55,744 nt of DNA. Source: an uncultured Burkholderiaceae bacterium (lineage in GTDB: Bacteria; Pseudomonadota; Gammaproteobacteria; Burkholderiales; Burkholderiaceae). The notes below the pieces were generated by a model. That model ran no database searches. It was given only the letters and a program-made list of their open reading frames with translations, and had not been told where the DNA came from. The translations under genes were made by a program, and so were the position numbers. Location: NCBI GenBank assembly GCA_937871985.1, contig CALMPB010000315.1, forward strand, positions 1 to 55,744. The letters are read 5' to 3'. Of this stretch, positions 30,754-43,036 are shown piece by piece (position 1 is the first letter of the stretch; every line of letters starts with the position of its first letter).

Positions 30754-31677
30754 ATGGCTGTTATTAACACCAACTCGCTTTCCCTGATTGCCCAAGGCAA
30801 TTTGAATAAGTCCCAATCGGCTCTGGGCACCGCCATCGAACGCCTGTCGTCCGGCATGCGCATCAACAGCGCCAAAGACGACGCCGCCGGCCAGGCCATT
30901 GCCAACCGCTTCACCGCCAACATCAAGGGCCTGACGCAAGCCACCCGCAACGCCAACGACGGTATCTCGATCTCTCAAACCGCCGAAGGTTCGCTGAACG
31001 AAATCAACAACAACCTGCAGCGCATCCGCGAACTGGCCGTTCAAGCCCAAAACGGCACGAACTCCGCATCGGACATCGACTCGATCCAGCAGGAAGTCAA
31101 CCAGCGCCTGGACGAAATCAATCGTGTCGCCCAGCAAACGCAATTCAACGGCATCAATGTGCTTGCCGCCACCGGCACTGCCTCGGGCGCCACCAGCCTG
31201 TCCATCCAGGTTGGCGCCAACGACGGCCAGACCATCACGATCAACATCAGCGGCAACGGCAACTGGAACAAGTATGACTCGACCGCCACGGGCGGCATCG
31301 CTAGCGCTAACGGCTCGATCAACGCAGTAGGCTCCCCAGTCTCGGGAAGCGTTACCACGGCCAATACTCGCCAAGTGGCAGCCAAGGGCTTCGACGTCCT
31401 CAGCAGCAGCGTCCTGGCGGACGTCGACTCCGCCCTGAAGGCCGTGGACAACCAGCGCAGCGACCTGGGCGCCATCCAGAACCGCTTCGAATCCACGATC
31501 GCCAACCTGAACAATACCGTCACCAACCTGTCGTCGGCCCGTTCGCGTATTGAAGACGCCGACTACGCTGTCGAAGTGTCGAACATGACCCGCGCGCAGA
31601 TTCTGCAACAAGCGGGTACTTCGGTTCTGGCCCAGGCCAACCAGGTTCCGCAAACCGTGCTGTCGCTGCTGCGTTAA
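30754..31677 (+). CDS. fliC: Flagellin
   Basis: The 307-residue filament subunit. The N-terminal domain (residues 1-140) starts [20 protein letters not shown] and contains the conserved D0/D1 coiled-coil helices. The C-terminal domain (about 215-307) ends [10 protein letters not shown], as in exported flagellins. The central variable part is short (about 145-215) and rich in S, T, N and G, so it would supply the surface-exposed sites for O-glycans. CTAGGAG lies upstream. No other flagellar structural gene is in the window, which is usual for fliC placed beside glycosylation genes. Expression is expected from the sigma-28 promoter. Confidence 0.96.
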
Positions 31678-31691
31678 TCGTAGTCGGCCAA

Positions 31692-31714
31692 AAGCCTGTC
31701 ACCACGACAGGCTT
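31692..31714 (+). other. First hairpin after flagellin
   Basis: AAGCCTGTC and GACAGGCTT form a perfect 9-bp stem around ACCAC, 13 bases before the main terminator stem. It has no T run, so it may protect the abundant flagellin mRNA 3' end. Confidence 0.55.
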
Positions 31715-31726
31715 CCGGAAGCATGG

Positions 31727-31761
31727 AAAAGCGCCTCGATCCGTTCGAGGCGCTTTTTTTG
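31727..31761 (+). terminator. Flagellin terminator
   Basis: AAAAGCGCCTCGA and TCGAGGCGCTTTT form a perfect 13-bp stem around TCCGT and end in a run of seven or more T. It is probably bidirectional and also serves the convergent glycosyltransferase gene. Confidence 0.93.
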
Positions 31762-31796
31762 TGGAACACCGTTATGGAAAAACCCGATATCCGCGG

Positions 31797-34700
31797 CTAT
31801 CGGGCCGGCAGCCAGGCCCTTGCCCACTGATCCAGAAACTCCCCCTCCAGCATCCAGTTCCGCAGAACGGCCTCGCGCAGCGCATCGCCCTGACGCGCCA
31901 GGGCTTCCGGCTCGGCCAGATGCGAACGAACCGCTTCCATCCAATCCTGATAGCGGTTGCGAACGATGGTTACAGGCAAGCCGCAACGGTAGGGTTCGAT
32001 ATCCGTGCAAATCACCGGCACGCCGCAGGCCCCCAGCTCCAGCAAGCGCAGATTGCTTTTGCTTCGATTGAACTGGTTGAGCTCCAACGGCACAACCGCC
32101 AGGTCCAGATTCAGGCTGGCAAGCTTCTGGGGATATTGCTCGATCGGCACGCCCGGATGAAATTCGCAGCGGATATCCTTGGGCTGCATGCCCATGAACA
32201 CCCACTCCACGTCGTTTTCCATATCCTTGACCAGGGCGCGAATCACGGCCAGATCGCCGTCATGGCTGCTGCCTCCGGCCCAGCCAATCCGCATTTTCTT
32301 TCCGGCCCGGCGTTCCGCCCGCAAATCCTGCCACCAGGGCGGATAGAGCCCGTTCTGCGCAATACGAATATCGGAATGATAGTCGGCATACTCGTCGGCC
32401 AGCGCCGGCGTCGAGACCACCAGCCAGTCCACCTGCTCGATCGCACGGCGCATCTTCTTGATCACGCTTTGCGGGATGAGCTTGCGGTATATGCTCTGCA
32501 CCGGAATATTCGGCATATAGTCGTCGAACTCCAGGGCGACCTTCGCCCCGGTGGACTCCCGATACCGCTTTATCTGCTTGAGAATCCCTTCATGAGCCCA
32601 GGCCCCTTGCAATACAATCGCGTCTGGCTGAATACGTGCCACATCGGTGAAGTGAAAGTCGCCCAATTTCAGCCCCCCTTCGATCTGCAGGCAGCCTTCC
32701 AGCGCCTTGAAAGGTTGGATGATCCGATAGTGGCCGCAGCCCTGCCAATCCACATGGGAGGCCAACACTACAGGCAACGGTCGCCCGGGTAACGGCTCCT
32801 GAATGCGCATCGCATCGGGGCTCAAGTCGAAGCCCGGGGAGAATTTTCCGAAAGCGGGATGATAGGCCGGATCACGCGCCAGTTGCGGAAGCCATTTGGC
32901 ATATAAGTGATCACGCTGCTCGTCGTCGGGTGTGGCAGTGAGGCCGAATTTCTCGGTCAGAAGGCGCGTGGCTCCCCCCATGTGGATCAGCCCCGTATCG
33001 GGCACGATCGTCAGCAAATACCCCGCCTGGGTCGCCTTCATGCACAAATCGGCGTCGCCGTAATAAACCGGGAACGATTCTTCGTCGAACCCACCCAGTT
33101 CCTCATAGACCGCGCGGCGCATCATCATGCAGGCGGCGCTGACCGCGCTGACATTGTGCGCCGCCTGCAATCGGCTCATATACCCTTGCAGGTTTCCGGG
33201 CAGGCCCTGAAAGGCAAAGCCCACGCTATTATCCATGCCCAGAACCAGGCCCCCATGCTGCACTCGAGAATCCGGGTAATTCAGGCGAGCGCCGACGATT
33301 CCGACCTCGGGACGCAAAGCATGTCCCAGCATGAGCGCAAGCCACTCCTTGTCGACCACCTGAATGTCATTGTTCAAGAACAGCAGGATCTCGCCTTTCG
33401 CCTGCTGCGCGGCATAATTATTCAGGCGTGAATAGTTGAAGGGTTGGGGCCAACGCAATACACGCACCTGATCCAGCCGCATGGCCTCCAGCCCGTCGAG
33501 GAACGCGCAGGCATCGGGTTCGATACTGCCATTGTCAACGACCAGCAACTCATACCTGGCATAGGCGGTATGGGCCATCAAACTATCGACGCAGCTCCGC
33601 AAAATGGGCAACTGGTCGCGCGTGGGAATAATGATGGACACCAAAGGCTGCGCATCGTGGCCGTAGCGTATTTGCTGCAAGCCCTTCTGCCCAGCGGGCG
33701 AAACCTCGGCTTGCACTCCCATGCGCGTCAAATGGGCCTGAACGGCCTGGCGGGACAAACGGTCAGTATCGTCCTCCTCGACCCAACGGAACAAGGGTTG
33801 GACACCATGCATCAGCACTTCGGGAATATGGCCTATCACAGGCGGCCCTGCCCGCTCTACCAGGCGCCACACTAAATCCACCAGCGCCAGGCCGCCGAAA
33901 CCGGCATCCAGCCCGCCAACGGCCTGCACCGCGGCCGTGCTGACTACCAGAGGGCGGCCCAAATACGGATAACTGCGCAGCAAGTCCAGATTGAAATCCG
34001 GCTTGAGCATGGGGTTGGCCGGCATGCCGTCTTTCAAGGTGGCTTCGTCGAAATACCAGGCCAACGGATCGGGCTGCCGCAGGCGATATTCGCCCATTAC
34101 CAGCGTAGCGTGCGGCAATAATCGATCGCCGGCATGCAGCACGCACAGGAAATCGGGCGCGCCGCCCCGTTCAATACGATCGGACAGCCGCCGCGGCCAA
34201 GGCATGCCCTCCCCCAGGAGCTCGATGCCATCGTCCGCAATATCCGCCTTACCCACGACCCAGATGCCGTCGACCGGTCGATGCTGGCCGCGGATGCTGT
34301 CCAGGGTGTCCGCAAGCGCCCGTTCATCCGCGCCATCCGGCACGATAATCGCAATGCCCAGGGTTCCGACGTCGGGGTTGGCTTGCAGCATGGTCTGGAT
34401 GGCCAGGACGCGGGACGGGGATGGCGCGCGAGCCTCCAGCCATTCGGGAACGCCCCACTTCCGCTGCAACTGCATCACATTCTGGGCATGATGCTTTTGG
34501 CTGATGCGCTCGAATAGCTCGACCGGCTCAAAACCTGCGTGCCTGTCATGTGCGAGCGGCTTTACCCTGACCAGATGATTGTCGCTGGAGCGATACCACC
34601 CCAATTCGCGAATCATGCGCCTGAAGTCCTCGTGCCCCTTGTCGCCCACGCCAGGAGAGACACGCCCCCTATGGCTAAATTGCTCGGAGGAAATCCTGAA

Positions 34701-35387
34701 GCAGGAATAGGCCTTGTACAGCATGGCCAAGTGGCCTTTGCGCAGCAGCTTGGCATGCATGGCCAGGTCGCCCACCCAGGCAATATGCTGCCCGCCCAGG
34801 TGAAACAAGGCCCCGATTTCCGTCAAGACGTGTTCACGGCGGAACATCACCGTCGACGGCTCACCGATGAAATTCAAGGTGTTGTCGCCCAGGAAAGACA
34901 CAAGATCCTTCCCGTGCACGCATGAGTCCTCTTCGAATGGCATGACATTGCCAATGAAATCGGGCAGAAGCTCTCCATTTTCATCGACAAGATAGCGTCG
35001 CGAAGACACCAATGAAACTTCTGGATGGCCATCCAGAACGGCGGCCAATGTCGATATGCAGCCCGCCAGCAGCAGGTCGTCATCGAACAGCGGCTTTATG
35101 TACTCGCCGCGAGCCAGTTCGATGCACCTCGACAGACTGCCGCCGCCCCATAGCCTTTTGGCATTCTTGAAGTAGCGAATTTTCGGCTCGCCCAGTTCCA
35201 TCAAAAATGGATCAATGGCCTTTTTCACCGACTCATCCGGGCTATCGTCGCAAATGACGATCTCGTAGTCGGTGAAGTCCTGACTGAGAAGGCTGCGTAT
35301 CGCGGCCTCGAGAAAGGTCGCCTTATAGGCAGGAATGGCAACCGTGACCTTGGGCTGAAAATTTTCGGAAGAGGCGGAATCTTTCAT
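31797..35387 (-). CDS. Giant multi-domain glycosyltransferase next to flagellin
   Basis: A 1196-residue protein. Module 1 (about 13-250) is a GT-A family 2 domain: VTVAIPAYKATFLEAAI and an acidic FDDD motif. Module 2 (about 345-560) looks like a degenerate GT-A domain without a clear DxD. Module 3 (about 578-820) is a canonical family 2 rhamnosyltransferase-like domain (VSIIIPTRDQLPILRSC, FLNNDIQ, YGDADLC). Module 4 (about 870-1196) resembles GT-B transferases (EFDDYMPNIP, GWAGGSSHDGDL, LLELGACGVPVICT). No membrane segment or signal is seen, so it acts in the cytoplasm, where flagellin is glycosylated before export. Large multi-domain transferases flanking fliC (Fgt1/Fgt2 of Pseudomonas syringae, FgtA of P. 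aeruginosa) glycosylate flagellin, and I infer the same here. It is convergent with fliC and divergent from the seven-gene operon. Confidence 0.88.
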   Translation of the reverse strand: MKDSASSENFQPKVTVAIPAYKATFLEAAIRSLLSQDFTDYEIVICDDSPDESVKKAIDPFLMELGEPKIRYFKNAKRLWGGGSLSRCIELARGEYIKPLFDDDLLLAGCISTLAAVLDGHPEVSLVSSRRYLVDENGELLPDFIGNVMPFEEDSCVHGKDLVSFLGDNTLNFIGEPSTVMFRREHVLTEIGALFHLGGQHIAWVGDLAMHAKLLRKGHLAMLYKAYSCFRISSEQFSHRGRVSPGVGDKGHEDFRRMIRELGWYRSSDNHLVRVKPLAHDRHAGFEPVELFERISQKHHAQNVMQLQRKWGVPEWLEARAPSPSRVLAIQTMLQANPDVGTLGIAIIVPDGADERALADTLDSIRGQHRPVDGIWVVGKADIADDGIELLGEGMPWPRRLSDRIERGGAPDFLCVLHAGDRLLPHATLVMGEYRLRQPDPLAWYFDEATLKDGMPANPMLKPDFNLDLLRSYPYLGRPLVVSTAAVQAVGGLDAGFGGLALVDLVWRLVERAGPPVIGHIPEVLMHGVQPLFRWVEEDDTDRLSRQAVQAHLTRMGVQAEVSPAGQKGLQQIRYGHDAQPLVSIIIPTRDQLPILRSCVDSLMAHTAYARYELLVVDNGSIEPDACAFLDGLEAMRLDQVRVLRWPQPFNYSRLNNYAAQQAKGEILLFLNNDIQVVDKEWLALMLGHALRPEVGIVGARLNYPDSRVQHGGLVLGMDNSVGFAFQGLPGNLQGYMSRLQAAHNVSAVSAACMMMRRAVYEELGGFDEESFPVYYGDADLCMKATQAGYLLTIVPDTGLIHMGGATRLLTEKFGLTATPDDEQRDHLYAKWLPQLARDPAYHPAFGKFSPGFDLSPDAMRIQEPLPGRPLPVVLASHVDWQGCGHYRIIQPFKALEGCLQIEGGLKLGDFHFTDVARIQPDAIVLQGAWAHEGILKQIKRYRESTGAKVALEFDDYMPNIPVQSIYRKLIPQSVIKKMRRAIEQVDWLVVSTPALADEYADYHSDIRIAQNGLYPPWWQDLRAERRAGKKMRIGWAGGSSHDGDLAVIRALVKDMENDVEWVFMGMQPKDIRCEFHPGVPIEQYPQKLASLNLDLAVVPLELNQFNRSKSNLRLLELGACGVPVICTDIEPYRCGLPVTIVRNRYQDWMEAVRSHLAEPEALARQGDALREAVLRNWMLEGEFLDQWARAWLPAR

Positions 35388-35689
35388 AATTGACTCTGTT
35401 TTTGCGGCTTGTCGCGCTTTTACCGCGCATGCGGATTCTCAGCCCTCACCACCCGGGAGGCTGCCGCGAAACCCCAAGCCAACGCGCTGGGCGTATGCCC
35501 AGCATAACTGCCCCGCCACCCAGGCGAACACTTGTTTTGGAACGAAATCGCCCCTTTAATCAACCATTTGTTTTTTATACGGGCATGTAAGATTTGACTG
35601 AAAATCGCGAAACTCAATCGATAACTTGTACAACAAGGTGCTTCAGCAAGCCTGACGACACTCCATAGCCCACCTGCCAACTAAACGTC
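35388..35689. other. Divergent intergenic region between the giant glycosyltransferase and the glycan operon
   Basis: About 300 bases, AT-rich from 35540 to 35640. It should hold both promoters. TTGACT at 35595 with weak -10 candidates about 17-20 bases downstream is the best rightward guess. I found no sigma-28 or sigma-54 consensus, and no gene. Confidence 0.45.
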
Positions 35690-36808
35690 ATGAACCCCCA
35701 GCGATCTGTTTTTGTCACCGAGCCGCACCTGCCACCCCTGGGAGAGTTCGTACCGTATCTTGAAAAAATCTGGGCCAGCAAGCGCCTCGCCAACAGCGGC
35801 CCCTTCCATGTCCAGTTGGAATCGGAGCTGGCCAATTACCTGGGAGTCAAACATCTCAGCCTGTTTGCCAATGGCACCCTTGCCCTGCTCACCGCCCTCC
35901 AGGCCTTGCGCATCAGCGGCGAAGTCATTACAACTCCATATACCTTCGCCGCTACCGCCCACTCCCTGTTGTGGAACAACATCAAGCCTGTATTCGTCGA
36001 TGTCGACCCCGACACTTGCAATCTGGATCCCGCGCGCATCGAAGAAGCCATCACACCCGCAACCTCCGCCATCCTGCCCGTGCACTGCTACGGCATTCCG
36101 TGCAATGTCGAACGCATCCAGCAAATCGCGGATACCTATGGCCTCAAGGTCATCTATGACGCCGCCCATGCTTTCGGTGTCAAGCAAGACGGCGGCAGCA
36201 TCCTGAACCACGGCGACCTGGCCGTCCTCAGCTTTCACGCCACCAAGGTTTTCAATACCTTCGAAGGCGGGGCCATCGTCTGCCCGGACGCCAAGATCAA
36301 GCAGCGCATCGACTACCTGAAGAACTTTGGTTTCGCCAACGAGGTCACCGTGGTCGCCCCCGGCATCAACGGCAAGATGAACGAGGTCAGCGCGGCAATG
36401 GGGCTGTTGCAGCTCAAGCATATAGACCAGGCGCTCAAAACCCGCGCGGTCATCTATCAGCGTTATGTGGAAGCCTTCACCGACGTTCCCGGCCTGCGTA
36501 TGCAGGAAATACCCGCCAACCTCGAGTGGAACCATGCGTATTGTCCGCTATTCGTCCGTCCGGAGCATCCGATCAGCCGGGACGATCTTTATAAACGACT
36601 GAAAACGCACAATATCCACGCCCGGCGCTACTTCTATCCACTCATCAGCTCGTTTCCCATGTATCGCGGACTGCCCAGCGCCGCCAGCAGACTCTTGCCC
36701 AACGCCAGCGTTCTCGCGGAACAGGTGATCTGCCTGCCTATTTATCCGACCCTCCATGTCGACGACCAGGAGCGACTGATAGACATCATCCTGCAGACAG
36801 CCCGATGA
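35690..36808 (+). CDS. DegT/DnrJ/EryC1-family sugar aminotransferase
   Basis: A 372-residue PLP enzyme of the DegT family, which transaminates keto-sugar nucleotides. The PLP-binding lysine is in SFHATKVFNTFEGGA (about residue 187), with the phosphate-binding FANGTLALLTAL near 60 and the conserved aspartate in VIYDAAHAFG near 160. It is the first gene of a tightly packed operon; its stop overlaps the next start by 4 bases (ATGA). It would supply an amino sugar precursor for the glycan. No sugar-nucleotide dehydratase is in the operon, so the keto-sugar comes from elsewhere or the enzyme uses another substrate. The start lacks a strong Shine-Dalgarno. Confidence 0.9.
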   Translation: MNPQRSVFVTEPHLPPLGEFVPYLEKIWASKRLANSGPFHVQLESELANYLGVKHLSLFANGTLALLTALQALRISGEVITTPYTFAATAHSLLWNNIKPVFVDVDPDTCNLDPARIEEAITPATSAILPVHCYGIPCNVERIQQIADTYGLKVIYDAAHAFGVKQDGGSILNHGDLAVLSFHATKVFNTFEGGAIVCPDAKIKQRIDYLKNFGFANEVTVVAPGINGKMNEVSAAMGLLQLKHIDQALKTRAVIYQRYVEAFTDVPGLRMQEIPANLEWNHAYCPLFVRPEHPISRDDLYKRLKTHNIHARRYFYPLISSFPMYRGLPSAASRLLPNASVLAEQVICLPIYPTLHVDDQERLIDIILQTAR

Positions 36809-38082
36809 GCAAGCGCATCCTGATCTTTCCCTGCGGCTCGGAAATTGGCCTGGAGGTTCACCGGGCGTTGCGCTATTCCACGCATTTCGATCTGATAGGC
36901 GGTTCCAGCGTCGATGACCACGGGCGCTTCGTCTACGACGAGTATCTGGGCGGCCTGCCCTTTCACGACAGCCCTGAATTCGCCCCGCTAATAGCCAATG
37001 TCATTCAAAAGCATCGCATCGACGCCATTTATCCCACGATGGACGCGGTCGCCGATACATTGCAAAGCCTCGCGGAACAGCTCGGCATACGCGTTATCGG
37101 CAGCTCCGCCGAGACCACGCGCATCTGCGCCTCGAAAAGCGCCACCTACGACATTCTGGATGGGCTGATTCCCACGCCGCGGCGCTACCCGGATCTGGAC
37201 GCCGTACCGGCCTATCCCGTCTTCATCAAACCCGATCGGGGCTACGGCTCACGCAATGCCGCGCGCGCCGACAGCGCCGCCGACGCCGCCGGCCTGCTGG
37301 CCCGCCAGTCCGGCCAGACCATGTTGATCCTGGAATGCCTGCCAGGCAAAGAATGGACGGTCGATTGCTTCTCGGATCGCCATGGAACGCTTCATTTTCA
37401 CGCAGCGCGAGGAAGAAACCGGATCAGCAACGGCATCAGCGTCAACACGTCGCCCAGTTCCGAATTTGCGGATGTCTTCGCCGACTGGGCGGCAATCATC
37501 AATTCCCGCCTGCGGCCGCGCGGCGCCTGGTTCTTTCAGGCCAAGCTGGATGCCGATGGCCGGCCCCGACTGCTGGAAGTCGCCGCCCGCTTCGCCGGCT
37601 CTTCCGCGCTACAGCGCGGCATCGGCGTAAACCTGCCTCTATTGAGCGCTTTTGACGCCTTCGACTGGCCTGTAGCCGTCACCCGCAACCATTATCCGAT
37701 CGAGTTCGACCGCGCCCTGGAAAACCGCTACCACATCAAGCTTGATTACCGGCATGTTTACGTGGATCTGGACGACTGCCTGTTGCTGAAGGGAAAAGTC
37801 AACCACGAACTGGTCTCGTTTCTATACAAGGCCATCAACGACGGATGCACGGTCTCCCTGCTCACCCGGCATTCCGGCGACCTGGATGAAGCCCTTGATA
37901 ACGCCCGCCTGCGAGCCCTTTTCAATCATATTGTCCATATTACCGACGGCGCGCCCAAGTCGGCCCACATCGATGCCAAAGATGCGATCTTCATCGATGA
38001 TTCGTTCCAGGAACGAAATGACGTGGCCCGACGCCTGGGCATTCCCGTCTTTGCACCCGACATGGTCGAAACCTTGCTGTAA
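36805..38082 (+). CDS. ATP-grasp ligase fused to a HAD-like domain
   Basis: 425 residues in two parts. Residues 1 to about 310 form an ATP-grasp enzyme of the carbamoyl-phosphate-synthase-like type: an N-terminal Rossmann-like start ILIFPCGSEIGLEV, a FIKPDRGYGSRNA glycine loop near 140 and a metal/ATP segment RPRLLEVAARFAGSS near 252. Residues about 312-425 form a small HAD-like domain with motif I VDLDDCLL and a final acidic motif FIDDSFQERND. ATP-grasp enzymes join a carboxylate to an amine via an acyl-phosphate; a HAD domain could remove phosphate. The fusion suggests activation of an amino acid-like or hydroxy-acid group for the glycan, which is inference. It overlaps the aminotransferase gene by 4 bases. 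Confidence 0.82.
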   Translation: MSKRILIFPCGSEIGLEVHRALRYSTHFDLIGGSSVDDHGRFVYDEYLGGLPFHDSPEFAPLIANVIQKHRIDAIYPTMDAVADTLQSLAEQLGIRVIGSSAETTRICASKSATYDILDGLIPTPRRYPDLDAVPAYPVFIKPDRGYGSRNAARADSAADAAGLLARQSGQTMLILECLPGKEWTVDCFSDRHGTLHFHAARGRNRISNGISVNTSPSSEFADVFADWAAIINSRLRPRGAWFFQAKLDADGRPRLLEVAARFAGSSALQRGIGVNLPLLSAFDAFDWPVAVTRNHYPIEFDRALENRYHIKLDYRHVYVDLDDCLLLKGKVNHELVSFLYKAINDGCTVSLLTRHSGDLDEALDNARLRALFNHIVHITDGAPKSAHIDAKDAIFIDDSFQERNDVARRLGIPVFAPDMVETLL

Positions 38083-38123
38083 GCAGTCAATCATCAATAC
38101 CCACTCCCGACAGGACTCAACAC

Positions 38124-38924
38124 ATGGCTCAAAAAAGCTCCGCACCCAAGGCGCCCGACAGCGACGCGGCCCCGCGCAAAGATCTGCTGTCGTTCCGCAC
38201 GAGCGAAGCACGCTCGGCCCTGGCCGAGCTTCGACAGACGACGGAAGCGCTGCTGCCTAAATTCGGAAACGAAAACTGGAACAAGCAGAGTCTGTTGACG
38301 ATGAACGTCACGGTTCTGTCCAGAGTCCTCTATTTGAATGAGCTGTACCAGAAAATCATCCCTGTCCCAGGAGTTATCTGCGAATTCGGCGTCCAATGGG
38401 GAGCGACACTGACTCAGCTCATCAACCTGCGCAGCGTTTACGAACCGTTCAACCACAGCCGGACCGTCCATGGATTCGACACCTTCGAAGGATTCACAGC
38501 CGCCCACGAAAAGGACGGAAGCCACTATCGTAAAGGGGACTTATACACGCAGGACAACCACGAGGCCGAACTCGACCGCATCCTGACGCTGATCGAATCC
38601 TTTCCCCCGCTTTCCCACATCAAGAAATTCGAACTGATCAAAGGCGATGCCAGCGTCACGATCGATCGCTGGCTGGACGAAAACCCCCACGCCATCATTT
38701 CATTGGCCGTCTTCGACATGGACCTGTACGCCCCGACCAAAGCCGTTCTCGAGAAGATCCGCCCTCGGCTCGTCAAGGGATCGGTGCTCGCCTTCGACGA
38801 ACTGAACTGCAAGCCCTTCCCCGGAGAAACCCGGGCAGTGGATGAAATCCTGAGCCTCAACAGTCTTCGGCTGCGTCGCAGCAACTTCCATCCCTTTGGG
38901 GCCTGGGCCGTATACGGCGAGTAG
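38124..38924 (+). CDS. TylF-type O-methyltransferase
   Basis: A 266-residue S-adenosylmethionine-dependent methyltransferase of the TylF/MycF/NovP family, which methylates sugar hydroxyls. CEFGVQWGATLTQL near residue 89 is the SAM-binding start, and FDMDLYAPTKAVLEKIRPRL near 198 followed by AFDELN contains the Mg-binding acidic residues. The first 60 residues are polar and variable. AGGA lies before the ATG, 41 bases after the ATP-grasp gene. It probably O-methylates a sugar or substituent of the glycan. Confidence 0.84.
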   Translation: MAQKSSAPKAPDSDAAPRKDLLSFRTSEARSALAELRQTTEALLPKFGNENWNKQSLLTMNVTVLSRVLYLNELYQKIIPVPGVICEFGVQWGATLTQLINLRSVYEPFNHSRTVHGFDTFEGFTAAHEKDGSHYRKGDLYTQDNHEAELDRILTLIESFPPLSHIKKFELIKGDASVTIDRWLDENPHAIISLAVFDMDLYAPTKAVLEKIRPRLVKGSVLAFDELNCKPFPGETRAVDEILSLNSLRLRRSNFHPFGAWAVYGE

Positions 38925-38969
38925 CCACGTCACGCCACCTCATATAACAAGACTCACAGGAAAAATGCC

Positions 38970-39920
38970 ATGCAATGCAAGAAACTGGGTTTGATCTACA
39001 ACGTATCTGGTCGCCACGGTTTTGACATCTCACACTGCCATAAGCCGACGCCCCTGCTGATAGATGACGACACCCTTCGCGTCTATTTTGGCGCCCGCGA
39101 TGAGCATAACCGCACCCGGACAACCTTCATCGACCTGAACCCCCATGACCTCACGGAGATAAAGTACGTTCACGATCGGCCCATCATCGATCTCGGCAAG
39201 ATCGGCGCCTTCGACGATAGCGGAGCGAACGTATGCTCCATCGTGCGCAACGGCAATACGATCCTGATGTACTACATCGGAGTCAACACGAGCACGACCA
39301 TACACATGCGCAATGCCGTGGGCGTCGCCATCAGCGAGGACGGCGGAACCACCTTCCGGCGCCTCTTCGACGGTCCCGTCCTGGATCGCACCAAGGACGA
39401 GCCCTACTACGTTGGCGCAGCCGAAATCCGTTGCGAGAACGGTGTGTGGAAGAGTTGGTACACCTCGGGCAACGAATGGAAAATCGTCGACGGGAAACCG
39501 GAAATAGACTACCAGATCAAATATGCCACGTCAGAAAACGGCCTGGACTGGTCCCGGCATAATCTGCAGGTCATCCAGCCCCAGGACGAACTCGAGGTCT
39601 GCGCACGCCCCTCGGTCTGGCAGCGTGATGGAACCTATCACATGTATTACAGCCGGCGCAGCATCGCCGGATTCCGCCACACCTCCGCCAACGGCTACAG
39701 GGCGGGCTATGCCCAATCGACAGACGGAATAACATGGCGGCGCATGGATGACGAGACAGGACTTTTGCCATCGGCCAGCGGCTGGGATAGCGAGGGCATC
39801 GCCTACCCGTATTATTTCGAATTATCCGGGCGCGAATTCGTGTTCTACAACGGCAACCAATTCGGCCGCTCCGGATTCGGCATCGCCGAGCTGGTCAACG
39901 ACGAAGGCAACGCGTCATGA
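38970..39920 (+). CDS. Five-bladed beta-propeller protein (glycosidase-like)
   Basis: A 316-residue protein with repeated blades of the type DGTYHMYYSRRS, GVWKSWYTSGNEW and TFRRLFDGPVLD, typical of the GH43/GH32/GH68 five-bladed propeller superfamily. There is no signal peptide, so it stays in the cytoplasm, which is unusual for a polysaccharide hydrolase and fits a biosynthetic or editing role. Acidic residues at blade starts could be catalytic, but I cannot confirm a triad. The stop overlaps the next start by 4 bases (ATGA). AGGAAAAA precedes the ATG. Confidence 0.72.
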   Translation: MQCKKLGLIYNVSGRHGFDISHCHKPTPLLIDDDTLRVYFGARDEHNRTRTTFIDLNPHDLTEIKYVHDRPIIDLGKIGAFDDSGANVCSIVRNGNTILMYYIGVNTSTTIHMRNAVGVAISEDGGTTFRRLFDGPVLDRTKDEPYYVGAAEIRCENGVWKSWYTSGNEWKIVDGKPEIDYQIKYATSENGLDWSRHNLQVIQPQDELEVCARPSVWQRDGTYHMYYSRRSIAGFRHTSANGYRAGYAQSTDGITWRRMDDETGLLPSASGWDSEGIAYPYYFELSGREFVFYNGNQFGRSGFGIAELVNDEGNAS

Positions 39921-41242
39921 GCTATGCCGTTCTCCGGGAACCTCCCTCCGAGGCAAGCATCGTTGCCGGCTGGCGCCCCGAACGCGGCGACCTGGTCAGC
40001 ATCTGCATGCTGGTATACAACCACGAAGCGTACCTGCGCGATGCGCTCAACTCCATCCTCAATCAAAAGACCGACTTCGGCTTCGAACTGCTTGTGCACG
40101 ACGACGCCTCGCAGGACGCAAGCGCATCGATCATCAAAGAGTACGCCGCTCGCTACCCCAGGATCGTCAAGCCCATCCTGCAATCGGTCAACCAGCACTC
40201 CCAGCGCATCTATCCTTCCGTACACTTCAACTATCCCCGCGCCAACCTGCCCTTTGTCGCCATGTGCGAGGGCGATGACCATTGGACCGATGAAACCAAA
40301 CTGCAGACGCAAGTAGACGGCTTGCTGGCGCACCCCGAAATCAATCTTTCGTTCCATTCGGCTGTCTTTGTCGACTATCACGAAAAGGAGAGCCCGCCGC
40401 GAATCTACGGCGACTACAAACCGACCGACGCCATCGTATCCTTCGCCGAAGTCATGCACCGGGTTCGCGGCTGGATACCCTTGGCTTCCTGCATGATCCG
40501 CCAGCCGGCCAAAATCCGCTTTCTGGATTTCCTCAAGGCCCGGCCATACCTGACGCTGGGAGAGATCTACTTCCAGTTTTTCGGGGCATTGCAGCAGGGA
40601 GCGCTCTATTTCGCCCGGCCCATGTCGCTGTATCGCTACAGAACCGAACAGTCATGGACGCGCAAAACGCTGCTTGACGCAAGTTTCAAAGCAACGCATG
40701 AAACGGCCATGATCCGCTCGTACATCGAACTGGATCAACTCACTGAAGGCGCTTACGCCAACGACTTCGTCGCCTTGATTCTGCAGCGTATTTTGTGGCT
40801 GTTTGCCTCTTACGCCAATCCACCCCGCACACTGCCGGCCATGGCCTACCTGGAATCGGTCCATACGGCCTGCCAGGCTGAAATCGAACACGCGCTGAAT
40901 CGGCTCGAGCAGGCGCCAGCGCACTACGTTATCTTCGGCTGCGCATCGGGCTGCCAAAGGATACTGAATACGCTGCCGGCCGCGAAAGTCGCGGCAATCG
41001 TCGATCGCGACAATCGCCGCATCGGAGAAAGCCTGAGCGGCAAGCCGATCATCGGCACCGACGACCTCGCCGCATATCCGGATTGCGAGGTCATCGTCAG
41101 CTCCATCGTTCCCGACCGCGAGGCCATATCGGCGCTGGCCGCGAACGCCGGCATTCCCGGCGAACGGATTCATTATCTCTTCGACAAACCTATCCACTTC
41201 CTCCAGAAAAACCCCATCCCATTGGACGTCCTGAGTTCATGA
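39917..41242 (+). CDS. Family 2 glycosyltransferase with C-terminal Rossmann-like domain
   Basis: 441 residues. The first 230 are a GT-A family 2 transferase (VSICMLVYNHEAYLRDAL, then the EGDDHWTD metal-binding motif near 117). The last 110 residues form a small nucleotide-binding-like fold: YVIFGCASGCQRIL, AAIVDRDNRRIGESLSGKPIIG and EVIVSSIV. This resembles the N-terminal domain of PglD-type sugar acetyltransferases, here without the acetyltransferase part. It is coupled to the propeller gene by a 4-base overlap. It probably adds one sugar of the glycan. Confidence 0.86.
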   Translation: MSYAVLREPPSEASIVAGWRPERGDLVSICMLVYNHEAYLRDALNSILNQKTDFGFELLVHDDASQDASASIIKEYAARYPRIVKPILQSVNQHSQRIYPSVHFNYPRANLPFVAMCEGDDHWTDETKLQTQVDGLLAHPEINLSFHSAVFVDYHEKESPPRIYGDYKPTDAIVSFAEVMHRVRGWIPLASCMIRQPAKIRFLDFLKARPYLTLGEIYFQFFGALQQGALYFARPMSLYRYRTEQSWTRKTLLDASFKATHETAMIRSYIELDQLTEGAYANDFVALILQRILWLFASYANPPRTLPAMAYLESVHTACQAEIEHALNRLEQAPAHYVIFGCASGCQRILNTLPAAKVAAIVDRDNRRIGESLSGKPIIGTDDLAAYPDCEVIVSSIVPDREAISALAANAGIPGERIHYLFDKPIHFLQKNPIPLDVLSS

Positions 41243-41297
41243 CATGGCGTGCAGGTAAACCACCACCATAAACGATTGCCCGAGCCATTCCGAAATC

Positions 41298-41756
41298 ATG
41301 AAAACCATACTGACCTACGGTACCTTCGACCTTTTCCATATCGGGCACCTTCGTCTGCTGCAGCGGCTTCGCGCTCATGGCGATCGCCTGGTCGTCGGGG
41401 TGTCCACCGACGAATTCAATCAGCTCAAAGGCAAGAAGACCGTGGTGCCGTTTGCCGACAGGATTCAAATCGTGCAGGCCCTGGACTGCGTCGATCTCGC
41501 CATTCCAGAAACCTGCTGGGAACAAAAAATCGCAGACATCAAGCAGCATGACGTCTCGATATTCGGCATGGGAAGCGATTGGGAAGGCCGCTTCGACGAC
41601 CTGAAAGCGTATTGCGAGGTTCTATATTTGCCGCGCACCGAAGGTATTTCCAGTACCCATATCCGCAAAACCCTCAAAATCCTGGATCAAACACATGTCG
41701 GCGAGCTCAAGCACGCGCTCGACCTGATTTCCTCGATCGTCGAACGTTTCGACTGA
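41298..41756 (+). CDS. Glycerol-3-phosphate cytidylyltransferase (TagD-like)
   Basis: A 152-residue nucleotidyltransferase. It carries GTFDLFHIGHLRLL with the HxGH motif (His14, His17) that binds CTP, STDEFNQLKG, WEQKIADI, FGMGSDWEGRFD, and YLPRTEGISST with the second signature. These motifs match TagD/TarD, which makes CDP-glycerol for teichoic acids, better than ethanolamine-phosphate or FAD-synthase relatives. The last 20 residues are an extra helix. A TagF/TagB-like transferase follows 20 bases downstream, giving a complete CDP-glycerol synthesis and use pair, which is rare in Gram-negative bacteria. Confidence 0.9.
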   Translation: MKTILTYGTFDLFHIGHLRLLQRLRAHGDRLVVGVSTDEFNQLKGKKTVVPFADRIQIVQALDCVDLAIPETCWEQKIADIKQHDVSIFGMGSDWEGRFDDLKAYCEVLYLPRTEGISSTHIRKTLKILDQTHVGELKHALDLISSIVERFD

Positions 41757-41776
41757 CAAAGGGGAAGTCACGACTC

Positions 41777-43036
41777 ATGCTGCAACGCCTGTTTTTCCAT
41801 CTGCTCCATCCGCTATGGCGGCTGTTCGACCGGTTGACCCGGAAGCGCGCCGACCATTGGGCGTTCGCGACGCATCATCTGCACACCGGCCGCTTCATCG
41901 AGAACCAGCGCGCCCTGTTCGAGCTGGTCAAAACAGACCCGGATATCCGCAAGGTGGTCTTCTATCGCGGCGCAACCCCGGATCTCCAGATAGAGGAAGC
42001 CGTCAACTACGAAGTAATGCGGCACGGCACATTGCGTGGCCTGCTTTTGCTTGCGCGCTGCAAGGTCGTGTTTCTGACGCACTCGATCTCGATGGACTAT
42101 TCGCTGCGCTGGGGCGGCGGGCGCTTCAGCATCCTGAAGCTGACCATGCGCAACCGGCTGGTCGTCAACCTATGGCACGGCATTCCCCTGAAACGCCTGC
42201 TCTACGCCGCCAACGAGGAAACCCTCCGGCATACCGACCGGGTAACGTATCGCCGCCAGGAAAGACTCGGCTACGCCGGCCTGATTGCTTCTTCGGACAT
42301 CGACAGCTATGCCATGGGCGCGATGTTCTACCCATTGAACTATCGTCAGGTCTGGAACACCGGCCTGCCCAGAAACGATTTCCTGAGCCAGCCGGAAAGC
42401 CGTCTGCCGCGCTATATCCGCGACTCGCTGCAATTAATACGCCAAAGATGCCAGGGGAAAAAGCTTGTGCTTTACGCCCCGACCTACCGCCAGACGGATA
42501 TCAGCGCCGCCGGGCACTATTACCAGTTTTCCGATGAGGAAATCGAAAGCCTTAAAACCGTTCTGCGCTCGCAAGGTGCAATCCTGGGTTATCGGCCGCA
42601 TTACTTCAAGAATAGCGCCAGCTATTTCAATCTCGACAAGTACATAGACAATGAACTGATCTTCGATATGTCGCAGGCCGTCATTCCCGAGTTTTCCGCC
42701 CTGGCCAGAGAATGCGACCTGCTTGTCACGGACTACTCAAGCGTCTATATCGAAGCCTTGTACCTGAGCAAGCCCGTCATCTGCTTCGGCTACGATATCG
42801 AGCATTACATGAGCAATGAAGATGGCCTGCTCTACGATATGAAGCTCGTCTTCCCCGGCCCCGTCGTCCATTCCTTCGACAAACTGCTTCTTGCCATCGA
42901 GTCCAGGCTCGGTCTTGGAAAAGACGACATCATCCAAGAACAAGCCACGGCAAAAAGCATTTTCTTCACACACAACGATGCGCTGAACTCGCAGCGCGTA
43001 AAAGAAGAAGTATTGAAACGCCTATCGGACTCATGA
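41777..43036 (+). CDS. CDP-glycerol glycerophosphotransferase (TagF/TagB-like)
   Basis: 419 residues from ATG 41777, with AAGGGGAAG upstream (the open frame extends to 41579 inside tagD, but not credibly). It has the hallmarks of the teichoic-acid glycerophosphotransferase family: LWHGIPLKRLLY near 132, a LYAPTYRQT segment near 232, and VTDYSSVYIEALYLSKPVICF near 317 with conserved Asp-Tyr-Ser-Ser. The N-terminus is amphipathic (FFHLLHPLWRLFDRL) and probably sits on the membrane face. It would transfer glycerol phosphate from CDP-glycerol to a sugar or chain, creating a phosphodiester. It is the last gene of the seven-gene operon. Confidence 0.88.
   Translation: MLQRLFFHLLHPLWRLFDRLTRKRADHWAFATHHLHTGRFIENQRALFELVKTDPDIRKVVFYRGATPDLQIEEAVNYEVMRHGTLRGLLLLARCKVVFLTHSISMDYSLRWGGGRFSILKLTMRNRLVVNLWHGIPLKRLLYAANEETLRHTDRVTYRRQERLGYAGLIASSDIDSYAMGAMFYPLNYRQVWNTGLPRNDFLSQPESRLPRYIRDSLQLIRQRCQGKKLVLYAPTYRQTDISAAGHYYQFSDEEIESLKTVLRSQGAILGYRPHYFKNSASYFNLDKYIDNELIFDMSQAVIPEFSALARECDLLVTDYSSVYIEALYLSKPVICFGYDIEHYMSNEDGLLYDMKLVFPGPVVHSFDKLLLAIESRLGLGKDDIIQEQATAKSIFFTHNDALNSQRVKEEVLKRLSDS

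What the first reader, a model, noticed from the sequence alone, without database searches (positions are those of the whole stretch)
30754..43036. Flagellin-linked island with teichoic-acid-type glycerol-phosphate chemistry
Flagellin is followed by a convergent 1196-residue glycosyltransferase and a divergent, overlapping seven-gene operon: DegT aminotransferase, ATP-grasp/HAD fusion, TylF methyltransferase, propeller, GT2, TagD-like CDP-glycerol synthase, TagF/TagB-like transferase. Seen: the motifs and gene order. Known: fliC-adjacent giant transferases glycosylate flagellin in Pseudomonas, and phosphate-containing flagellin glycans are known from P. aeruginosa PAO1 and from Clostridioides difficile type A flagellin, whose loci include nucleotidyltransferase, phosphatase-like and glycerophosphotransferase-like genes. 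Inferred: this locus builds a methylated amino-sugar glycan with a glycerol-phosphate or similar phosphodiester, probably on flagellin. I know of no described Gram-negative system with this gene set, but cannot search. An O-antigen or capsule role is the main alternative.
Basis: partly seen in the sequence, partly recalled or inferred. Interest (0 to 1): 0.85.

Follow-up and report, generated by a model that had tools for sequence, protein, structure and literature searches.

The report
Flagellin island predicted to add glycerol-phosphate
A bacterium related to Castellaniella carries, beside its flagellin gene, a set of enzymes that most likely decorates the swimming filament with an amino sugar bearing a glycerol-phosphate group, and relatives of the same gene set sit beside flagellin in other bacteria, in one case with enzymes for a carbon-phosphorus compound in place of the glycerol-phosphate enzyme.

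Summary
In 18 genomes with a TagF relative, not chosen for flagellin, flagellin lies within 10 kb of TagF in 15; two are cut by contig ends and one is unlinked. No Wzx- or Wza-type gene was found within 100 kb on the TagF contig. DegT is in the locus in 16 of 18, TagD in 17. TagD is close to solved CDP-glycerol synthases but misses the curated equivalog score. The carrier without TagD, G576, has phosphonate genes in that place: a cytidylyltransferase-PEP mutase fusion, phosphonopyruvate decarboxylase and a PsrA-type dehydrogenase. Two further islands carry both sets. Best reading: a flagellin glycosylation island that adds a phosphodiester, probably glycerol phosphate, to a glycan with a DesI-type amino sugar. 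Phosphodiester flagellin glycans are known (C. difficile type A, PAO1 b-type), and TagB/TagD in flagellin regions were reported in 2020, so this is a new variant; the donor swap is the surprising part. No chemistry was measured.

The parts
30754..31677 (+). fliC, flagellin, 307 aa; likely acceptor protein; 21 Ser/Thr in residues 143-222
   Evidence: PF00669 145 bits, PF00700 112 bits; NF005294 474.9 over cut-off 387; composition
31797..35387 (-). 1196-aa multidomain glycosyltransferase (two GT2 modules plus a C-terminal GT1-like part); likely flagellin glycosyltransferase
   Evidence: PF00535 in two stretches, PF13524 26.1 bits; 65% identical copy beside fliC in Castellaniella defragrans, 31-41% copies in other TagF loci
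35690..36808 (+). DegT/DesI-type sugar aminotransferase, 372 aa
   Evidence: PF01041 338 bits; best solved relative 2po3 (listed as 4-dehydrase; DesI by recall) 236 bits, next 152; TIGR04427 306.9 bits, under its cut-off 650
36805..38082 (+). ATP-grasp ligase fused to a C-terminal HAD-type domain, 425 aa
   Evidence: PF15632 53.6 bits; AlphaFold2 model pLDDT 94.9; ATP-grasp fold matches; D321, D323, T354, K385, D398, D399 invariant in the 40 sequences aligned
38124..38924 (+). TylF/Methyltransf_24-like methyltransferase, 266 aa
   Evidence: PF13578 24.6 and PF05711 21.2 bits, both under cut-off; 64-72% copies in the islands of G002, G004, G005, G576
38970..39920 (+). beta-propeller of GH43/GH130 type, 316 aa; optional part
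   Evidence: weak PF04041; model pLDDT 88.9; Foldseek to GH43/GH130-type chains; 74% copy in the island L144 of G583
39917..41242 (+). GT2 glycosyltransferase, 441 aa
   Evidence: PF00535 49.4 bits
41298..41756 (+). TagD-like cytidylyltransferase, 152 aa; likely makes CDP-glycerol
   Evidence: PF01467 80 bits; 144 and 143 bits to solved glycerol-3-phosphate cytidylyltransferases 2b7l and 1coz; HIGH and RTEGISST motifs; TIGR01518 145.9, under cut-off 165.4
41777..43036 (+). TagF/TarF-like (Glyphos_transf) transferase, 419 aa
   Evidence: PF04464 153.6 bits over cut-off 22.1; solved relatives TarL, TagF, Cps3D; WHGIPLK, PRND, RPHY, TDYSS motifs

Best explanation
This is a flagellin glycosylation island. 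Proposed order of events: (1) the DesI-type aminotransferase makes a dTDP-4-amino-4,6-dideoxy sugar from dTDP-4-keto-6-deoxyglucose supplied by an RmlB encoded elsewhere; (2) the ATP-grasp/HAD enzyme joins a carboxylate to the new amine, with the HAD part removing a phosphate, and the methyltransferase adds a methyl group; (3) the 1196-aa glycosyltransferase and the smaller GT2 build a short glycan on Ser/Thr of the flagellin variable region before export; (4) TagD makes CDP-glycerol from CTP and sn-glycerol-3-phosphate; (5) TagF transfers glycerol phosphate (one or few units) to that glycan as a phosphodiester. Shown here: gene content, protein families, conserved motifs, and repeated physical linkage to flagellin and to each other. 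Inferred: every catalytic step, the acceptor and the product; step 2 is the weakest.
For: Linkage: TagF at E<=1e-60 was found in 3 of 297 and 12 of 298 genomes of two family draws, each including its centre, a known carrier. With G001, G002 and G005 this gives 18 genomes, none chosen for flagellin. Flagellin lies within 10 kb of TagF in 15 of 18, while flagellin-family matches +-10 kb cover on average 1.1% of these genomes. In the same locus: large GT 16 of 18, DegT 16 of 18, ATP-grasp/HAD 15 of 18, TagD 17 of 18. No Wzx- or Wza-type gene within 100 kb on the TagF contig in 18 of 18. Contig lengths coincide for 33 of the 120 best ATP-grasp and 120 best TagF homologues, against a mean of 0.4 (at most 3) in shifted controls. 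CDP-glycerol. Amino sugar; RmlB in 6 of 6 carriers searched, in G004 between the island's flagellin genes. Precedents: C. difficile type A and PAO1 b-type (PMC10714395, PMC11833859), P. syringae viosamine island (PMC3927599).
Against: No chemistry is shown. TagD misses the curated TIGR01518 cut-off (145.9 vs 165.4). The DegT/ATP-grasp pair is not flagellin-specific: 73 of 80 ATP-grasp loci have a DegT match, and only 4 of 80 have a FliC match inside the locus. Four non-proteobacterial loci (L020, L022, L047, L066) have a 39-49% TagF, and 19 more loci a 22-29% TagF match; none of these 23 shows a FliC match. G1016 has TagD-TagF 1.04 Mb from any flagellin-family match. The island of G003 holds a capsule-type gene (PF05159 49.6 bits over cut-off 20) just before TagD, and four GT2 genes follow TagF in C. 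defragrans. ABC-type (Wzm/Wzt, KpsMT) exporters were not searched. The 18 genomes are not independent: eight islands from the draw around G013 look alike. RmlB is common (over cut-off in 10 of 14 controls).
Confidence: 0.66

Rival explanations
1. The phospho group is not glycerol phosphate but another CMP- or CDP-activated group (amino-acid phosphate as in C. difficile/PAO1, or a phosphonate), with the same flagellin target.
For: In C. difficile and PAO1 the TagF-like protein is proposed to move phospho-(methyl)threonine (PMC10714395, PMC11833859). In G576 the same TagF type (72% identical) sits with a phosphonate cassette and no TagD was found in the genome.
Against: The window's TagD gives 143-144 bits to glycerol-3-phosphate cytidylyltransferases and 61 to the ethanolamine-phosphate enzyme. 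CD0242 is described as modelled on GDP-mannose pyrophosphorylase, a different family (PMC10714395).
Confidence: 0.2
2. The operon builds an O-antigen or capsule (teichoic-like) polymer and only happens to neighbour fliC.
For: A TagF-like capsule polymerase, Cps3D, is among the solved relatives. The DegT/ATP-grasp pair is common in loci without a FliC match. A capsule-type PF05159 gene lies in the G003 island.
Against: Flagellin within 10 kb in 15 of 18 carriers and no Wzx or Wza gene within 100 kb on the TagF contig. TagF is 419 aa, without the long N-terminal part of the 729-aa polymerase. No export gene among the window genes scanned.
Confidence: 0.1
3. The operon makes a pool of modified nucleotide sugar used for both flagellin and another surface glycan.
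For: RmlB is outside the island in five of six carriers; the DegT/ATP-grasp pair occurs elsewhere near glycosyltransferases.
Against: TagF and the large GT stay with flagellin in most carriers.
Confidence: 0.1

Closest known systems
Clostridioides difficile type A flagellin glycan, cd0240-cd0244 (PMC10714395, outline and section 6 read)
   Same: fliC-adjacent locus with glycosyltransferase, TagF-like transferase, nucleotidyltransferase, phosphatase-like protein and methyltransferase; phosphodiester on the glycan.
   Different: There the activating enzyme is modelled on GDP-mannose pyrophosphorylase and the group is phospho-N-methylthreonine on GlcNAc; here a TagD-type enzyme, a DesI-type aminotransferase and an ATP-grasp/HAD fusion.
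Pseudomonas aeruginosa PAO1 b-type flagellin, PA1088-PA1091 (PMC11833859, passages read)
   Same: Gram-negative flagellin phosphodiester; glycosyltransferase and TagF-like activity. G1131 has TagF and GT in one open frame beside flagellin, as the paper describes for PA1091.
   Different: Phospho-N,N-dimethylthreonine on a deoxyhexose; no TagD, DegT or ATP-grasp gene in the passages read. Sequences not compared here.
Enterobacterial flag-2 variable region 1 (PMC6993521, passages and section 9 read) and Geobacillus islands (PMC5109656, one passage read)
   Same: TagB/TagD (or tagD with pgs) in flagellin glycosylation regions; glycerol-phosphate polymers (or a phospholipid derivative) proposed. 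Aminotransferase and methyltransferase genes also reported in flag-2.
   Different: What I read describes no DegT-ATPgrasp/HAD-TagD-TagF-GT core and no phosphonate genes. Sequences not compared here.
Pseudomonas syringae viosamine island (PMC3927599, passages read)
   Same: dTDP-viosamine aminotransferase VioA (372 aa), methyltransferase, 1173-aa transferase VioT; flagellin target.
   Different: Acylation through VioS/VioR/ACP/VioB there, by an ATP-grasp enzyme (inferred) here; no phosphodiester in the passages read.
2-aminoethylphosphonate on C. difficile flagellin (PMC8861647, passages read, abstract in part)
   Same: A phosphonate on a flagellin glycan, shown by mass spectrometry.
   Different: That paper reports C. 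difficile as negative for pepM, so the origin is open; G576, G1024 and G1051 carry phosphonate genes inside the flagellin island, with a dehydrogenase (pointing to hydroxyethylphosphonate).
CMP-phosphonate tailoring (PMC6697681) and phosphonylated glycoproteins of marine microbes (PMC8931226); passages read
   Same: Cytidylyl activation of phosphonates for cell-surface tailoring; phosphonates proposed on surface glycoproteins.
   Different: The cytidylyltransferases assayed there are LicC-related and use aminoethylphosphonate; the islands here have a PF01467-type domain fused to the mutase. 'Flagell' does not occur in the first paper, and only in the reference list of the second.

Membership tests
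Glyphos_transf (PF04464, TagF/TarF-like) | Pfam score over gathering cut-off | tested here: met
   153.6 vs 22.1 bits
Glyphos_transf (PF04464, TagF/TarF-like) | conserved His-containing motifs of the transferase domain (motifs recalled) | tested here: met
   WHGIPLK at 133, RPHY at 273, TDYSS at 318, aligned to TagF
TarF equivalog NF041712 | curated score | tested here: not met
   90.9 vs 550 bits; so not filed as TarF
Glycerol-3-phosphate cytidylyltransferase TIGR01518 (TagD) | curated equivalog score | tested here: not met
   145.9 vs 165.4 bits; called TagD-like only
Glycerol-3-phosphate cytidylyltransferase TIGR01518 (TagD) | HxGH and RTEGIST-type motifs; match to solved enzymes over residues 1-126 | tested here: met
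Glycerol-3-phosphate cytidylyltransferase TIGR01518 (TagD) | makes CDP-glycerol | not testable with these tools
   needs an enzyme assay
C. difficile type A / PAO1 b-type flagellin phosphodiester system | glycosyltransferase plus TagF-like transferase near fliC | tested here: met
C. difficile type A / PAO1 b-type flagellin phosphodiester system | CD0242/PA1090-type (GDP-mannose-pyrophosphorylase-like) nucleotidyltransferase | tested here: not met
   none among the operon proteins; the cytidylyltransferase is PF01467
C. difficile type A / PAO1 b-type flagellin phosphodiester system | phosphoserine-phosphatase/ThrH-type HAD enzyme | tested here: inconclusive
   a HAD-type domain is fused to ATP-grasp; not compared with ThrH
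Viosamine island (P. syringae) | VioA-type 4-aminotransferase | tested here: inconclusive
   closest solved relative is 2po3, DesI by recall; VioA itself was not compared
Viosamine island (P. syringae) | VioS, VioR, ACP, VioB acylation genes | tested here: not met
   no such family among the nine island proteins
O-antigen or capsule locus | Wzx or Wza gene nearby | tested here: not met
   0 of 18 carriers within 100 kb on the TagF contig; short contigs limit this in several
O-antigen or capsule locus | ABC-type polysaccharide exporter nearby | not tested
   not searched

The most novel reading that the evidence does not exclude
These islands encode flagellin phosphotransferases with exchangeable CMP-linked donors. 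In most, TagD supplies CDP-glycerol. In one genome (G576) three genes pointing to CMP-2-hydroxyethylphosphonate stand in the place of TagD, with no TagD found elsewhere in the genome, and two others (G1024, G1051) carry both sets. So some bacteria would make a carbon-phosphorus compound inside the flagellin island and put it on the filament, which would give a genetic route for flagellin phosphonates; the only flagellin phosphonate I met in print was found by mass spectrometry in C. difficile.
Probability: 0.5. Interest if true: 0.78.

Novelty: new variant of a known kind. Interest (0 to 1): 0.58.

Why it matters
It turns a guess from one genome into a recurrent, testable class: flagellin islands with a DegT-ATPgrasp/HAD-TagD-TagF-GT core in several proteobacterial lineages. 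The donor swap in G576 suggests that TagF-type enzymes move different phospho groups onto flagellin glycans, and it offers genomes in which a flagellin phosphonate and its biosynthetic genes could be studied together. It also suggests that 'TagF' near fliC should not be read as teichoic acid by default.

Tried and rejected
Own-genome search: no genome is held for the window. TagF searches around G001 found only G001 itself, 1 of 300 in its order and 1 of 250 in its family, so linkage was tested in the family draws around G003 and G013. Castellaniella genus draw: a FliC relative in 9 of 10 genomes. For the other eight with FliC, the fliC regions were fetched (L105-L112; L106 only 5.7 kb): none of the eight gives a TagD, TagF or ATP-grasp match at E<=1e-5; the GT is there in L105, L111 and L112, and a 28-33% DegT in L105 and L107. 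So the spot is variable.

The structure search for the ATP-grasp enzyme gave only the general fold (biotin carboxylase, PylC), so its substrate remains open. The propeller matched many GH43/GH32/GH117/GH130 chains at TM about 0.6-0.75, so its role remains open. L133 has a galU gene near TagF, read as a neighbour only. The contig-length test is indirect and used only as support. One search looked for flagellin in 13 ATP-grasp genomes (12 of 13 have a match); I used the positions for six of them and did not assess linkage in the others. G718 has a PEP mutase match without the cytidylyltransferase part; its region (L149) was fetched and only screened by BLAST. Searches for phosphonate and flagellin and for Castellaniella flagellin glycosylation listed no description of this island; most subscription papers are not in the library. 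The automatic ORF choice misses some genes (fliC of L001 for one), so counts rest on tblastn.
Full report
Observation. The nine genes are confirmed at the stated places. TagF begins at 41777. The DegT/ATP-grasp and propeller/GT2 pairs overlap by 4 bp; the other four junctions have gaps of 20-55 bp. Family scores are strong for flagellin, DegT, TagD-type, TagF-type and GT2 domains, and weak for the methyltransferase and the propeller. The propeller becomes clear as a model (pLDDT 88.9; GH43/GH130-type matches). The ATP-grasp/HAD model is confident (pLDDT 94.9) and matches ATP-grasp structures; D321, D323, T354, K385, D398 and D399 are invariant in the 40 sequences aligned (that these are HAD motifs is recalled). 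The island genes are 54-60% GC, the flanks about 62%.

Is it tied to flagellin? I tested this without choosing genomes by flagellin. A scan with the ATP-grasp/HAD alignment found 136 relatives and kept the best 80 as loci. Of these 80, 73 also hold a DegT match, 9 a TagF of 39-75% identity, 19 more a 22-29% TagF match, and 4 a FliC match inside the locus. Of the 9, the five proteobacterial ones (L001, L002, L003, L005, L075) have flagellin within 10 kb of TagF; the other four (L020, L022, L047, L066) and the 19 weaker ones show no FliC match in the locus. Whole-genome searches with TagF gave 3 of 297 in the family draw around G003 and 12 of 298 around G013 at E<=1e-60, and only the centre G001 of 300 and of 250 in the draws around it at E<=1e-30. 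With G001, and with G002 and G005 known from the ATP-grasp scan, this makes 18 genomes. A flagellin-family match lies within 10 kb of TagF in 15 of 18 (3.5 to 7.9 kb); G010 and G1081 have none on the TagF contig, which is short or ends nearby; G1016 is 1.04 Mb away. PF00669 also matches hook proteins such as FlgL (recalled); in the 15, a match of over 130 bits, as expected of true flagellin, is within 10 kb, in G1131 at 5.2 kb while its nearest, at 3.5 kb, has 91 bits. On average 1.1% of these genomes lies within 10 kb of such a match. The genomes are related in groups, so these are not 18 independent events, but carriers come from several draws and gene orders differ between them.

What travels together. 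In the TagF loci the large GT is present in 16 of 18 (next to TagF in most, fused in G1131, several genes away in G001 as in the window), DegT in 16, ATP-grasp/HAD in 15 (G010 has a partial copy on another contig), and TagD in 17. In G583, whose contig length equals that listed for Pseudazoarcus pumilus, the order is DegT, ATP-grasp/HAD, propeller, GT2, an FkbM-type gene, TagD, TagF, GT, fliC, fliC. In Castellaniella defragrans (L001) the arrangement is that of the window without methyltransferase, propeller and GT2 between ATP-grasp and TagD; a Methyltransf_24 gene stands beside the GT and four GT2 genes follow TagF. In G1131 TagF and GT share one open frame, as described for PA1091 of PAO1 (PMC11833859). 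Contig lengths coincide for 33 of the 120 best homologues each of ATP-grasp/HAD and TagF, against a mean of 0.4 in shifted controls. Against an export locus: no PF01943 or PF02563 match lies within 100 kb of TagF on its contig in any of the 18, of which 15 and 13 have such a match somewhere. Limits: several contigs are short, ABC-type exporters were not searched, and the G003 island holds a capsule-type PF05159 gene just before TagD.

Chemistry, by inference. TagD matches the solved glycerol-3-phosphate cytidylyltransferases over residues 1-126 (144 and 143 bits; ethanolamine-phosphate enzyme 61 bits) and keeps HIGH and RTEGISST, but scores 145.9 against a curated cut-off of 165.4; the TagD of G1051 also falls short (162.6). 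TagF matches TarL, TagF and the capsule polymerase Cps3D and lacks the long N-terminal part of the 729-residue TagF, which suggests one or few units rather than a polymer. DegT is closest to chain 2po3 (DesI by recall) with 236 bits, the next being 152, which points to dTDP-4-keto-6-deoxyglucose as substrate. RmlB is found in 6 of 6 carriers searched, but also over the cut-off in 10 of 14 control genomes, and lies in the island only in G004. The role given to ATP-grasp/HAD is a proposal without direct evidence.

The donor swap. In G576, whose TagF is 72% identical to the window's, the place of TagD is taken by a 434-aa cytidylyltransferase-PEP mutase fusion (TIGR02320 404.7 over 319.55), phosphonopyruvate decarboxylase (TIGR03297 464.7 over 312.5) and an iron alcohol dehydrogenase (TIGR03405, PsrA, 531.3 over 423.7). 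The other three PF01467 matches of that genome were read: they look like CoaD, HldE/RfaE and NadD (by recall of their motifs) and match TagD only in part, the longest stretch being 33% over 98 residues. The mutase keeps EDKTGLKRNS (motif recalled). G1024 and G1051 carry the same trio (79% and 55% identical for the first two, 48% for the dehydrogenase) directly before TagD in the flagellin island; in G1051, the one scanned, the dehydrogenase scores 366.6, under its cut-off. Such fusions also occur in L013, L017, L031 and L060, which show no FliC match. That the dehydrogenase reduces phosphonoacetaldehyde to 2-hydroxyethylphosphonate is recalled and inferred. The CMP-phosphonate cytidylyltransferases assayed in PMC6697681 (passages read) are LicC-related and use aminoethylphosphonate, so the substrate of the PF01467-type domain here is open. 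The likely conclusion is that the group moved by this TagF type varies. A search for the fusion in the family draw around G576 found it only in G576, with a mutase-only match in G718 (2 of 294).

Known background. Flagellin phosphodiesters are established in C. difficile and PAO1 (PMC10714395, PMC11833859). A 2-aminoethylphosphonate on C. difficile flagellin was found by mass spectrometry, its origin left open (PMC8861647, passages). TagB and TagD in enterobacterial flag-2 regions (PMC6993521, section 9) and tagD in a Geobacillus island (PMC5109656, passage) were reported from genomes. Phosphonylated surface glycoproteins were proposed for marine microbes (PMC8931226, passages). The enterobacterial survey PMC4875605 (passages) lists DegT aminotransferases and methyltransferases; glycerol and teichoic do not occur in its text. 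The core described here and the phosphonate version were not met in the searches, whose listings I saw, in a library that lacks most subscription papers.

Verdict. A real flagellin glycosylation island, most likely adding glycerol phosphate to a methylated amino-sugar glycan; a new variant of a known kind, with an unexpected phosphonate version in relatives.

Noticed in passing
L143:6104-9643; L147:8427-11994; L148:1131-4671: Phosphonate biosynthesis trio inside flagellin islands of G576, G1051 and G1024; became part of the finding.
   Followed up: yes
L142:6342-10193: TagF and the large glycosyltransferase in one 1837-residue open frame beside flagellin in G1131, with TagD but without DegT and ATP-grasp.
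   Followed up: partly
L013, L017, L031, L060: Cytidylyltransferase-PEP mutase fusions near ATP-grasp/HAD genes in Fibrobacter, Bacteroidales and Actinomycetota loci without a FliC match.
   Followed up: no
L003:18549-19778: Capsule_synth (PF05159) gene just before TagD in the flagellin island of G003.
   Followed up: no
L136:3979-5892: 637-residue second Glyphos_transf-like protein (38 bits) in the island of G1051; L075, L138 and L140 also hold a second, 25-26% TagF.
   Followed up: no
L136:7226-7921: WbqC-family gene between DegT and ATP-grasp/HAD in G1051.
   Followed up: no
window:3152-6565: 1137-residue frame combining molybdopterin oxidoreductase and NAD/FAD/2Fe-2S reductase domains.
   Followed up: no
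window:49684-54123: Pair of gyrase/topoisomerase IV subunit genes on the minus strand.
   Followed up: no
window:10063-10136: tRNA gene on the minus strand, the only Rfam match over gathering score in the window.
   Followed up: no
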